DNA from: Thysanoteuthis rhombus | Lineage: Eukaryota; Mollusca; Cephalopoda; Oegopsida; Thysanoteuthidae | Direction of reading: 5' to 3' | DNA: 64,000 bases | Assembly: GCA_963457665.1 (NCBI GenBank) | Contig: OY735207.1 | Coordinates: 51,167,015-51,231,014, forward strand | Shown here: one piece after another, positions 44,455 to 64,000 of the stretch | Position numbering within the stretch: the first letter of the stretch is position 1 | Layout of the letters: each line of letters opens with the position of its first letter | Made by a program: the position numbers and the translations under genes | The notes under the pieces: generated by a model | Databases searched by the model: none | What the model was told of the DNA's origin: nothing | What the model saw: only the letters and a program-made list of their open reading frames with translations

Positions 44455-44690
44455 GCGAACCGTTTTAATATCGAATGGGCGAGTGTGTGAAATGTTGAAG
44501 GTTTGTACGCAAACAAGGTTGTTCTGATTCATTTTATTGGTGTGCCGTTTTAAACATTGAATAGGCAAACAGATTTAAAATTTGAAGGTTTGTATTGAAA
44601 AACATTTGTTTCCATCTATTTTATTTGTGCACCATTCTCAATATCGAGTGGGTGAGTACGTGAAACGATAAACGTTTGAATGGAAACGAA
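44455..44690 (+). repeat. ~86-bp repeat, three copies (family C related)
   Basis: Phrases CGTTTTAATATCGAATGGGC, CGTTTTAAACATTGAATAGG and CATTCTCAATATCGAGTGGG begin at about 44461, 44548 and 44633, each followed by a GAAGGTTTGTA-like or AACGTTTGAA-like end. The third copy runs on into the 8-kb unit. Confidence 0.55.
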
Positions 44691-46496
44691 GTCATTTTTT
44701 TCTGTTGTTGTTGGAAAGGGAAGTAATCCTTAATTCATTTTAAGGTTACCTGGAGTTATCTCCATTTGACACACGGATTCCACGAATAAACCCAGTCTTC
44801 CTAGCATCTGTTTCCCGTGGCTTTGTGCCGTACTAAATTAGGCTAATCTTAGTTCATATCTATTGTGCTTATCAAGGAGATATGAGAGAAAATACCATGG
44901 GACATGAACAGATGTGAAAAGGAGTAAAAACGTAAACAGGTTTGATATTTCGTGATGTTTAAATCATTTTGACCATGTATTCGAACGTGACGGATTTAGG
45001 CCGAGTAATATAACGTTAATTTGTCACCCCCCCAGTCTTCCAGTAGTTTGGGGACAAATGAAAAGATGTAGATAATAATGATGATGAAAAACAAGAAATT
45101 TTAATGTTTAATTCCCCCTTAAACATTGGTGCAGCTCAACCAAATCTGCATACTTAGTGAACCTAGGGGAAGAACTTGGACTGTTTGGTTAAAACAATTT
45201 AAAAAAAGAGTTTTAGACGAGGTTCTTTTTACGCGTAACTAAAATGAATAAGTGAATCCTTATTTTCCGATCTTTAGCTCAGCTTTGCCGTGGCTCAACC
45301 AAATTTAGTATGAATATGAGAAGAAGAACTTGATCTTAAGAAAGAAAAAAAAGCTTCAGAACGACATTAAAAGTTCTGTATATTAAAAATTCTATAAAAT
45401 CCAGCACAAAACGAAAACTCTCACCTCAAAATGGTTTCTGGAGAGAGATTTTTAACTACATAATTTGAAAACAAAGTAAATGATTGAGTAATTTGATACG
45501 GCACCTCACTGTTGGGTAGTGGTTATGAAGCTCGACTTATAGAACATCACTACTGAAGTGACTATGATTTTCACTGGATGCCTCACTCTGGGGGTCTTGT
45601 GTCATACTGAGCCAAGCTTAATATATATCGCTTGATTGTCAGTATTATATAGTGATTTACTTCAACTGGTTCACTCATCTTGGTTCTTATTGTCATAGTG
45701 TTTTGGTCGTTTTGCCCTTCGGCCTTCTTCAGGTGCATGACACAGTTGGTAAACTTCAAAGAATTTCGAACAGAACCCCTTATTTAATCCGCAGGAGTAG
45801 ACTGTTTTCATTCCGTTGCACATGCTAGAGAATATCTTATATCAGTTAATTGTGTTTGTGAAGACCGGAGGGTACAACGGCTGAAACGTAGTGACAACGA
45901 TACTCAAGACGAGGATACTCGTCCGAGTGATTAAGTATATGATTTTGATTATTCGTCATCTCAGAAATTAAGCAAAGAGAAAGAAAAAGCAATTCAGTAT
46001 ACTTAAGAATAAAACTGATATAAGTTTGTTTGGTGATCAGTTGACTTTAATGTATTGGACACCGGGGCCTCTAAGAGTGGGGTGCATCTCATCGGTAGTC
46101 GGGTGGGGGAAGTGTCCGAGGGGGCCGAGAGTTAAACTCCTAAGTCGATACAATGTGTTCATCAAAAAAGGGTTGTCTACATCGTTTACCGTCGATTGAA
46201 TGTAGTATGGAGTGCTGAAAGGGTTATGGCAGATAAAGACATGATGGTTGAAGAACGCAGTTGTTTGTGCAATGTGTGTGACGGAAGACGGATGTTTTGC
46301 ATTGCCTTATAAAATTCCTCTTGGCACCCTTGTCGGGCAGTTCGATCTATATTTCAATTTGCAGAGGCCAAAAGTCAATTAAAAGAAAATCTCAATCCTC
46401 GAATCAATATTTTTGATCTGTTGTGCTTATGCCAAAGTAGTCAACAGAGATTCGCCGTCGTAATATCGATTGAGGAGAAAAAGCATTTATGATTAA

Positions 46497-46605
46497 GAAA
46501 GCACCGAACTTCGTCAGATCACCCAAGTTAAGCAATGTCGAATCTGGTCAGCACTAAAATAGGCCATCGTTCAAGAACGCTAAGGTACTCTAAGTAGCTT
46601 GTGAC
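46497..46605 (+). pseudogene. 5S rRNA-derived sequence A, unit 1
   Basis: CACCGAACTTCGTCAGATCA, CCCAAGTTAAGCAATGTCG, GGTCAGCACT and GGTACTCTAAG follow the order of animal 5S rRNA (GTCCGATCACCGAAGTTAAGC and so on). The box C part is badly eroded, so it is not expected to be functional. Confidence 0.75.
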
Positions 46606-46750
46606 CATACTAAGTTAGACTAAGCAAAGTTTAGCAAAGTCATGAAGGCATCGGTTCTTGTCTGACCGCCGAAGTCAAGCAACGTCGGAATTGGTCATTG
46701 CTAACATTGGCGATCACTTAGGAAGATCAGGTACTGTAAGCAGCGCGTGG
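46602..46750 (+). pseudogene. 5S rRNA-derived sequence B, unit 1
   Basis: GTGACCATACTAAGTTAGA resembles the 5S start (GGCCATACCACGTTGA). After a short insertion come CATCGGTTCTTGTCTGACC, GCCGAAGTCAAGCAACGTCG and GGTACTGTAAGC. Better preserved than copy A, and starts where A ends, so the pair looks like a decayed 5S tandem. GTGGCCTTATGTCAGACC after it may be the start of a third. Confidence 0.78.
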
Positions 46751-60594: not shown

Positions 60595-62407
60595 ACAAAG
60601 TCATTTTTTTCTGTTGTTGTTGGAAAGGGAAGTAATCCTTAATTCATTTTAAGGTTACCTGGAGTTATCTCCATTTGACACACGGATTCCACGAATAAAC
60701 CCAGTCTTCCTAGCATCTGTTTCCCGTGGCTTTGTGCCGTACTAAATTAGGCTAATCTTAGTTCATATCTATTGTGCTTATCAAGGAGATATGAGAGAAA
60801 ATACCATGGGACATGAACAGATGTGAAAAGGAGTAAAAACGTAAACAGGTTTGATATTTCGTGATGTTTAAATCATTTTGACCATGTATTCGAACGTGAC
60901 GGATTTAGGCCGAGTAATATAACGTTAATTTGTCACCCCCCCCAGTCTTCCAGTAGTTTGGGGACAAATGAAAAGATGTAGATAATAATGATGATGAAAA
61001 ACAAGAAATTTTAATGCTTAATTCCCCCTTAAACATTGGTGCAGCTCAACCAAATCTGCATACTTAGTGAACCTAGGGGAAGAACTTGGACTGTTTGGTT
61101 AAAACAATTTAAAAAAAGAGTTTTAGACGAGGTTCTTTTTGCGCATAACTAAAATGAATAAGTGAATCCTTATTTTCCGATCTTTAGCTCAGTTTTGCCG
61201 TGGCTCAACCAAATTTAGTATGAATATGAGAAGAAGAACTTGATCTTAAGAAAGAAAAAAAAAGCTTCAGAACGACATTAAAAGTTCTGTATATTAAAAA
61301 TTCTATAAAATCCAGCACAAAACGAAAACTCTCACCTCAAAATGGTTTCTGGAGAGAGATTTTTAACTACATAATTTGAAAACAAAGTAAATGATTGAGT
61401 AATTTGATACGGCACCTCACTGTTGGGTAGTGGTTATGAAGCTCGACTTATAGAACATCACTACTGAAGTGACTATGATTTTCACTGGATGCCTCACTCT
61501 GGGGGTCTTGTGTCATACTGAGCCAAGCTTAATATATATCGCTTGATTGTCAGTATTATATAGTGATTTACTTCAACTGGTTCACTCATCTTGGTTCTTA
61601 TTGTCATAGTGTTTTGGTCGTTTTGCCCTTCGGCCTTCTTCAGGTGCATGACATAGTTGGTAAACTTCAAAGAATTTCGAACAGAACCCCTTATTTAATC
61701 CGCAGGAGTAGACTGTTTTCATTCTGTTGTACATGCTAGAGAATATCTTATATCAGTTAATTGTGTTTGTGAAGACCGGAGGGTACAACGGCTGAAACGT
61801 AGTGACAACGACACTCAAGACGAGGATACTCGTCCGAGTGATTAAGTATATGATATTGATTTTTGGTCATCTCAGAAATTAAGCAAAGAGAAAGAAAAAG
61901 CAATTCAGTATACTTAAGAATAAAACTGATATAAGTTTGTTTGGTGATCAGTTGACTTTAATGTATTGGACACCGGGGCCTCTAAGAGTGGGGTGCATCT
62001 CATCGGTAGTCGGGTGGGGGAAGTGTCCGAGGGGGCCAAGAGTTAAACTCCTAAGTCGATACAATGTGTTCATCAAAAAAGGGTTGTCTACATCGTTTAC
62101 CGTCGATTGAATGTAGTATGGAGTGCTGAAAGGGTTATGGCAGAAAAAGACATGATGGTTGAAGAACGCAGTTGTTTGTGCAATGTGTGTGACGGAAGAG
62201 GGATGTTTTGCATTGCCTTATAAAATTCCTCTTGGCACCCTTGTCGGGCAGTTCGATCTATATTTCAATTTGCAGAGGCCAAAAGTCAATTAAAAGAAAA
62301 TCTCAATCCTCGAATCAATATTTTTGATCTGTTGTGCTTATGCCAAAGTAGTCAACAGAGATTCGCCGTCGTAATATCGATTGAGGAGAAAAAGCATTTA
62401 TGATTAA

Positions 62408-62661
62408 GAAAGCACCGAACTTCGTCAGATCACCCAAGTTAAGCAATGTCGAATCTGGTCAGCACTAAAATAGGCCATCGTTCAAGAACGCTAAGGTACT
62501 CTAAGTAGCTTGTGACCATACTAAGTTAGACTAAGCAAAGTTTAGCAAAGTCCTAAAGGCATCGGTTCTTGTCTGACCGCCGAAGTCAAGCAACGTCGGA
62601 ATTGGTCATGGCTAACATAGGCGATCGCTTAGGAAGACCAGGTACTGTAAGCAGCGCGTGG
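62408..62661 (+). pseudogene. Two 5S rRNA-derived sequences, unit 3
   Basis: Nearly identical to the unit 2 pair. Confidence 0.75.
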
Positions 62662-63355
62662 CCTTATGTCAGACCATGTAGAGCTTAGTAGATAAAGAGA
62701 AGGCCCCAACCGTAAAGACATAAATTAGCAAGAAGAAGCCACCTGGCCATATATATATATATATATATATATATATATACTAGCAAGGAGGTCCAAATCA
62801 GATCTAGCCGAAACCATTACCGCCTTAATCCGTCCCGGGGACCATAGGCCTGTGCCTCAAGTACCTCATTGGTAATCTGGCTCTGTGCCAAAGAGCAAAA
62901 TACACGGTGCAATTAACAATCAACTTTAGGAGCATAGAAATTTTCTATTCAGATACGTTTTTCAAATAGAAATATTTCACCGAATTAAATGTTGGACAAA
63001 TTACATTATGATAATAAATATCTTTTGATACCTTTTATGGATTTACCAGTAAAAAGTCGTCAAAAATTCACTTTTTATGAGAAAAATGCTGAACTTCTTT
63101 GTGGAAGTCCCCATTACTTCACATTGCGAGTAGGAGATGTATAGATCAACAAAATTGTTACCTTTAAGTTGAGGAGTTCATTGTTACGGACAGAAGAAAA
63201 AAATACGACCCCCCAAACAAAACAATGTTCATTATATAAGTATATATTTTAAAGATGTGTTTACTTTAGCGCAAAACCAAACCTAGAGATTAAACCATGG
63301 GCGGATCCAGGATTGTGAGCAGGTAGGGGTCCAAGCAGGAAAATACATTTTACCA

Positions 63356-64000
63356 ACTAAAAAAAGTTGGTAAAGTCATTACCAGAGAACTAGCAATCCT
63401 ATTCAACATATGCCTAAGCAGAGTGAAGTCCCAGCAGATTGGGACACTGCAATCATAATGCTATTACATAAGAAAGGGAACCCGAAAAATCTAAAAAACT
63501 ACAAGCCAATAAGCATACTCAACTGTATCTACAAACTTTTTACTAAAGTGATCACCAACCAATCAAAAACCAGCCACGAGAACAGGCTGGATTCAGGAAA
63601 AGCTAATCAATCATTGACCATCTTCATTCAGTAAATCAACTAAAAGTGAAAGCAGCAGAATATAGAATGCCACTTGCTGTAGCAGTTGTCGACTCCAAGA
63701 AGGCTCTAGACTCAGTGGAAACCTCAAGGTCATTGATGCTATCAAACAACAAGACATACACCCAGTATATGTCAGAGTTTTGCAACATATATACCGATAG
63801 AGCAGTTCGTTCATTAGGCTACGTAAAGATTCTGAACCTATTCAGCTCGAAAAGGGAGTAATATAAGGCGATACCAGTTCACCTGAATCCTCCACAACAT
63901 ACCTCAAGATGATCCTCTGCAACCTAGATGGGAAAATAAAGGAATCAAAATAGACGGCGAATATCTAACTAACCTTAGATTTGCTGACGACATCGTCCTT
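63356..64000 (+). mobile_element. Degraded RTE LINE, unit 3 (cut by window end)
   Basis: Matches the first 645 bp of the unit 2 LINE, including the RT finger region and the FADD region at the window edge. Confidence 0.85.

What the first reader, a model, noticed from the sequence alone, without database searches (positions are those of the whole stretch)
44686..64000. Recent head-to-tail array of an ~8-kb unit with joints inside a LINE stub
The window shows two full copies and one partial copy of a ~7.95-kb unit. Both joints are the same: an RTE LINE 3' stub cut at TGTGGCG and fused to AACAAAGTCATTTT. At the left edge of unit 1 the sequence flows without a break from family C, as in the independent copy at 27 kb. 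So 44.69 kb is the ancestral state and the joints are derived. Microhomology at the joint is only a few bases, pointing to end joining or template switching rather than repeat-repeat recombination.
Basis: seen in the sequence. Interest (0 to 1): 0.75.

Follow-up and report, generated by a model that had tools for sequence, protein, structure and literature searches.

The report
Nested tandem duplication in an animal genome
An 8,000-base stretch of animal DNA with no gene found in it was copied head-to-tail after a break inside an old jumping-gene fragment, and the whole cluster was then copied once more; this is an ordinary kind of genome duplication, although this one records its steps unusually clearly.

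Summary
Units lie at 44685-52663, 52664-60593 and 60594-64000 (cut by the window edge), and both joints are identical inside an RTE-like LINE 3' end. The window's own genome shows the rest. The run continues as 3 full units plus 784 bp of a fourth. About 6.6 kb further on, a second block begins with 1.4 kb of the same left flank, then 2 full units, a 2.74-kb partial unit and a second copy of the right flank. In all: 5 full and 2 partial units, and 5 identical joints, apparently from one founding event. Four junctions share 0-1 bp, which points to end joining. More RTE of the same orientation lies at the right edge of block 1, suggesting that the joint cut a LINE already there rather than being made by one. 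Interior units are nearly identical (0-0.15%), but block 1's first unit and left flank differ by about 1.4-1.8%, ending sharply at 51243: a haplotype mosaic, real or from assembly. My first model, one crossover between two old copies, failed when unit 3 was read to its end. No gene was found in the unit. It is a new example of a known kind.

The parts
43319..44684 (+). left flank segment L, copied a second time at the start of block 2 outside the window
   Evidence: match to 75987 onward begins at 43319; L-L' 24/1365 substitutions
44413..44780 (+). dispersed repeat ('family C') that runs without a break across the left edge of unit 1; shows that 44684/44685 is ancestral
   Evidence: copy near 27 kb aligns on both sides of the edge
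27042..27273 (-). independent copy of that repeat
   Evidence: sequence read
44685..52663 (+). unit u1 (7979 bp), first unit of block 1
52664..60593 (+). unit u2 (7930 bp)
60594..64000 (+). first 3407 bp of unit u3 (7970 bp in the genome)
52482..52663 (-). (CAT)n tail and about 90 bp of RTE-like LINE 3' end, cut at joint 1
60469..60593 (-). the same stub at joint 2, with a shorter (CAT)n
51244..52663 (+). tract of u1 with no substitution against u2 (only a (CAT)n length change); left of it u1 is diverged
47649..49631 (+). old decayed RTE-like copy inside the unit, interrupted by about 860 bp (48462-49325)
50919..51415 (-). second old RTE-like 3' end inside the unit

Best explanation
This is a two-level tandem segmental duplication in which no gene was found. 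Step 1: a break inside an RTE-like LINE already at the right end of the segment was joined, without homology, to the sequence at 44685, making one 7.98-kb head-to-tail duplication. Step 2: homologous unequal exchange between the copies added units and kept the interior ones nearly identical, so every joint is a copy of the first. Step 3: a second join without homology (block joint, 1 bp shared) duplicated the whole array with 1.4 kb of left and 6.35 kb of right flank. Separately, the last unit of each block lost its right part by deletion. The left flank and first 82% of u1 belong to a lineage 1.4-1.8% away, most simply another haplotype joined at 51.2-52.7 kb by crossing over or by a phase switch in the assembly. 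Shown: structure, joints, copy numbers, divergences in the assembly. Inferred: order of events, the LINE being the same element, end joining.
For: Five full and two partial units in two blocks. The same joint five times, with a diagnostic base 4 nt inside that separates 5 joints (A) from 2 left edges (G). Junction table: 0 bp shared at the unit joint and the two deletions, 1 bp at the block joint. A 149-bp RTE piece in the same orientation, from about 285-434 bp into the element, follows the truncated last unit of block 1. Interior units agree: u2-u3 3/7922, u2-v2 11/7928; partial units 0/784 from u3 and 1/2742 from v2. L-L' 24/1365 against X-X' 27/6347, Fisher p 1e-6. No substitution in the last 1.4 kb of u1-u2, 0 of 100000 uniform simulations. 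A 1-kb probe from the unit's right part matches 5 places at 99-100%, all at this locus (40 of 3122 candidates scored, the best first).
Against: No reads were seen, so copy number rests on the assembly. The RTE piece at the right edge cannot be proved to be the remainder of the cut stub: its divergence (12/149 from a consensus of 17 sequences; 9 of 25 candidate copies dropped as short or unmatched) is ordinary for the family, while the stub has few private differences (0 in 64 bp among 8 copies; 1 in 72 bp among 21). u1-u2 differences are overdispersed (variance/mean 2.65), so the uniform model behind the simulation is only approximate. My earlier prediction that u3's right end would differ from u2's failed.
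Confidence: 0.6

Rival explanations
1. Assembly or haplotype artefact: block 1 and block 2 are the two haplotypes of one locus placed in series, or copy number is inflated, and the sharp change at 51243 is a phase switch.
For: L-L' differ by 1.76% and u1-v1 by 1.5%, as alleles might, while X-X' is patchy (27/6347, clustered). False duplications of this kind are common in assemblies (PMC8081667, passages).
Against: No N between 43000 and 103000 in continued window coordinates, and the block joint shares only 1 bp, so an overlap assembler had nothing to join on. The unit joint likewise has no overlap and recurs five times. The blocks differ in unit number and right edge.
Confidence: 0.22
2. The LINE made the joint: reverse transcription of an RTE RNA was primed at about 52481, and the 3' end of the short cDNA was joined to 44685 on a sister chromatid, as reported for L1 in human tumours. 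(Differs from the best explanation only in step 1.)
For: The stub is antisense, so its cDNA end points at the joint. Among 8 window copies it alone has no private difference in 64 bp. 2 of 20 fetched copies align to the LINE over only 94-96 bp, so such short stubs occur. PMC7058536 (passages) describes small L1 insertions at tandem duplication joints.
Against: Same-orientation RTE sequence from further along the element lies at the right edge of block 1, as expected if a longer LINE was cut. RTE covers about 9% of 1-52663, so a joint in one by chance is not rare. The stub's youth is weak evidence: two other copies tie with it at 3 differences from the majority, and 5 of 20 fetched copies have no private difference in 72 bp, where the stub has one. 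TSD tests found nothing convincing in any copy, so they do not help.
Confidence: 0.15
3. Edge-unit model: the array and the block copy are old, interior units are homogenised, and edge units and left flanks simply escape homogenisation. (Differs from the best explanation in the reading of the divergence.)
For: In both blocks the first unit is the odd one: interior units agree, u1 and v1 share 10 sites against u2, u3 and v2, and v1 has 24 private sites.
Against: It does not explain why the X copies have stretches of over 1 kb without a difference and others at 1-2%, nor the sharp end of divergence at 51243.
Confidence: 0.2

Closest known systems
Tandem arrays founded by non-homologous recombination and altered by unequal crossover (yeast CUP1; PMC4232551, abstract and start of introduction as printed in the outline)
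   Same: A founding joint without long homology, carried by the repeats of the array; copy number changed by homologous exchange.
   Different: Here no gene was found in the unit, one breakpoint lies in a LINE, and the whole cluster was duplicated a second time.
Gehring-type hybrid middle copies from unequal crossing over (PMC6060901, passages)
   Same: Mosaic units with identity boundaries in a tandem cluster.
   Different: The three-copy hybrid pattern seen in the window disappeared when u3 was read to its end.
L1-mediated tandem duplication in cancer genomes (PMC7058536, passages)
   Same: A short LINE piece at a tandem duplication joint, in the orientation the model needs.
   Different: Right-edge RTE sequence argues for a pre-existing, cut LINE; no target site duplication could be shown, and an endonuclease motif was not tested.
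RTE retrotransposons with very short microsatellite 3' ends (Lepidoptera; PMC2887409, abstract and passages)
   Same: Truncated 3' ends followed by a trinucleotide repeat, common in the genome.
   Different: Clade assignment here rests on RVT_1 and the tail; no phylogeny was made.

Membership tests
Tandem segmental duplication | two or more adjacent head-to-tail copies sharing one derived joint | tested here: met
   5 identical joints, 5 full and 2 partial units
Tandem segmental duplication | ancestral adjacency kept at the outer left edge | tested here: met
   27-kb repeat copy spans the edge; two left edges read AACGAAG
Tandem segmental duplication | copies present in DNA, not only in the assembly | not testable with these tools
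   no reads available
End-joined rearrangement | 0-few bp microhomology, no long homology at the junction | tested here: met
   0, 1, 0 and 0 bp at four junctions; on the LINE side judged from other LINE copies
LINE-mediated (TPRT) tandem duplication | LINE absent from the unduplicated locus; inserted 3' end at an endonuclease site | tested here: inconclusive
   RTE continues at the right edge of block 1, against; no unduplicated allele seen; TSD test uninformative; endonuclease site not tested
RTE clade LINE | reverse transcriptase domain | tested here: met
   RVT_1 E 3.4e-25 in 14220-15278(-); best solved-structure matches are R2 and LINE-1 proteins
RTE clade LINE | groups with RTE in an RT phylogeny | not tested

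The most novel reading that the evidence does not exclude
A germline tandem array seeded by an aborted RTE insertion, with the 90-bp cDNA bridging two sister chromatids, followed by a second duplication of the whole array: a germline counterpart of what has been reported for L1 in tumours.
Probability: 0.12. Interest if true: 0.5.

Novelty: new member of a known kind. Interest (0 to 1): 0.27.

Why it matters
It is a readable case of how a tandem array starts and grows: one joint without homology, copies made by exchange, a second joint without homology that copies the cluster, and ragged right edges. It also shows that a window edge and haplotype mosaicism can suggest a wrong history until the flank is read. 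No gene was found in the unit, so no function is proposed.

Tried and rejected
Single-crossover model: from the window alone, u1-u2 differ on the left and not on the right, and u2-u3 agree on the left, as one unequal crossover between two old copies would give. It predicted a diverged right end in u3. Reading u3 whole gave 3/7922 from u2, so it was dropped.

Snap-back insertion at the joint: the last 7 bp of the stub (TGTGGCG) are the exact reverse complement of CGCCACA 15 nt upstream; a random 7-mer of the window has such a partner within 50 bp in 2.1% of draws, and in 0.16% of 2537 positions of equal G+C. Two differences from the window LINE copies fall there and no private one in the 64 bp before (Fisher p 0.008). 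With 20 more genomic copies, chosen for similarity to the stub, 5 of 20 carry the same T and 0 of 20 the same G. One private change in 72 bp remains, so this is at most a hint. Background papers: PMC11724301 (passages), PMC11292364 (abstract and start of introduction).

Target site duplications: none convincing at the stub or at six other copies; exact matches of 7 bp or more are expected in 11% of random pairs. Genes in the unit: 10 of 55 stop-to-stop pieces of 45 aa or more gave no Pfam match; one more, 50998-51336(-), had none either; the other 44 were not scanned. Rfam found nothing at E 1 over 44000-52700; over 46450-46820 alone there were two weak matches below their gathering scores. 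LINE-made tandem duplication in print: four terms together, no paper; broader searches gave listings, of which one paper was opened (PMC7058536). The interruption of the older LINE at 48462-49325 shows no clear terminal inverted repeats.

Full report
Observation. Self-comparison of the window gives three head-to-tail copies of one unit: u1 44685-52663, u2 52664-60593 and the first 3407 bp of u3, which runs off the window. The two joints are identical: an RTE-like LINE 3' stub with a (CAT)n tail, antisense, ending TGTGGCG, then AACAAAGTCATTTT. The tail array has 36.7 units at joint 1 and 17.7 at joint 2.

What the window hides. The genome that holds the window was reached (2.73 Gb, 514 contigs; the window is part of contig C10). 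I fetched 70 kb to the right and continue window coordinates past 64000. Block 1 is u1, u2, u3 (60594-68563) and a partial unit of 784 bp (68564-69347). Then come 149 bp of RTE, 138 bp, and a flank X (69635-75986). At 75987 the left flank begins again (homologous to 43319-44684), followed by v1 (77365-85348), v2 (85349-93343), a partial unit of 2742 bp (93344-96085) and a second X (96086-102453). There are five unit joints and two left edges; the five joints read AACAAAG and both edges AACGAAG. A 1-kb probe from the right part of the unit (51450-52450) matches five places at 99-100%, all here, with 40 of 3122 candidates scored.

Junctions. The unit joint shares 0 bp with either parent beyond the break, the block joint 1 bp, and the two right-edge deletions (unit position 782 to RTE, unit position 2727 to X) 0 bp each. 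Where a LINE is one parent, its continuation is taken from other copies. This is the mark of end joining; template switching without homology is not excluded.

The LINE at the joint. RTE-family sequence covers about 9% of 1-52663 (4792 bases, slightly too many because one probe began at an arbitrary point), so a joint in one is not remarkable. Two readings were weighed. In one, a LINE already present was cut. In the other, an aborted insertion made the joint, as described for L1 in tumours (PMC7058536, passages). For the second: orientation fits; among 8 window copies the stub alone has no private difference in 64 bp, though two others tie with it at 3 differences from the majority; and 2 of 20 fetched copies align over only 94-96 bp. 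In 72 bp the stub has one private difference, and 5 of those 20 copies have none. For the first: at the right edge of block 1, where the original right flank should be, lies an RTE piece in the same orientation from about 285-434 bp into the element, lacking its own 3' end. The simplest account is that it is the remainder of the cut LINE, left after a deletion. Its divergence is ordinary (12/149; 17 sequences, 9 of 25 candidates dropped) and neither proves nor disproves this. I favour the cut LINE.

History from divergence. Full-length comparison of five units: u2-u3 3/7922, u2-v2 11/7928, u2-v1 40/7919, u1-u2 112/7897, u1-v1 123/7956. The partial units are 0/784 from u3 and 1/2742 from v2. 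So interior units of both blocks are nearly one sequence and the first unit of each block is the odd one. In columns without gaps, the 97 sites private to u1 lie in unit positions 423-6476. The last u1-u2 substitution is at 51243, and the final 1.4 kb differ only in (CAT)n length. The left flanks differ by 24/1365 (1.76%), the right flanks by 27/6347 (0.43%) (Fisher p 1e-6), and the right-flank differences are clustered (45 of 20000 simulations as clustered). A mosaic of two haplotypes about 1.6% apart fits best, with the switch at 51.24-52.66 kb. Whether it is a crossover on the chromosome or a phase switch in the assembly cannot be told. An edge-unit effect is a rival.

Artefact? There is no N between 43000 and 103000, and neither joint offers an overlap on which an assembler could join. 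That speaks for real DNA. But no reads were seen, and two haplotypes placed in series would give much of the same picture; assemblies are known to do this (PMC8081667, passages).

Function. No gene was found. The pieces scanned from the unit gave no Pfam match (10, one; 55 pieces of 45 aa or more exist), and the LINE copies in the unit are broken. I take it as neutral duplication; that is inference.

Verdict. An ordinary kind of event, recorded in unusual detail: a two-level tandem duplication begun by a join without homology inside a LINE. The closest known cases are CUP1 arrays (PMC4232551, abstract and start of introduction).

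Noticed in passing
window 46490-46760 (and the same place in each unit): Two adjacent stretches resemble 5S rRNA by eye; Rfam gives 17.3 bits to 5S_rRNA for 46629-46742, below its gathering score of 38. Possibly an old 5S-derived SINE.
   Followed up: partly
window 34022-34396 (-): Open frame matching Trypsin (Pfam E 5.7e-20), probably an exon of a serine protease gene in the left flank.
   Followed up: no
window 41628-41715 (-): tRNA-like match, 31.6 bits against a gathering score of 29; ARAGORN finds no tRNA, so perhaps a SINE head.
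   Followed up: no
window 8114-8363, 9817-10049, 22967-23221, 25827-25963, 33625-33840: A dispersed repeat family of about 230 bp, roughly 69-79% alike among these copies, with another relative in X near continued coordinate 73741-73975.
   Followed up: no
window 51458-51810: This part of the unit belongs to a genome-wide dispersed family, 71-76% identical at many places.
   Followed up: no
window 48462-49325: About 860 bp interrupt an old RTE-like copy; no clear terminal inverted repeats.
   Followed up: partly
L019 and L030: Two RTE copies elsewhere in the genome align to the reference LINE over only 94-96 bp, so very short 5' truncation occurs in this family.
   Followed up: partly
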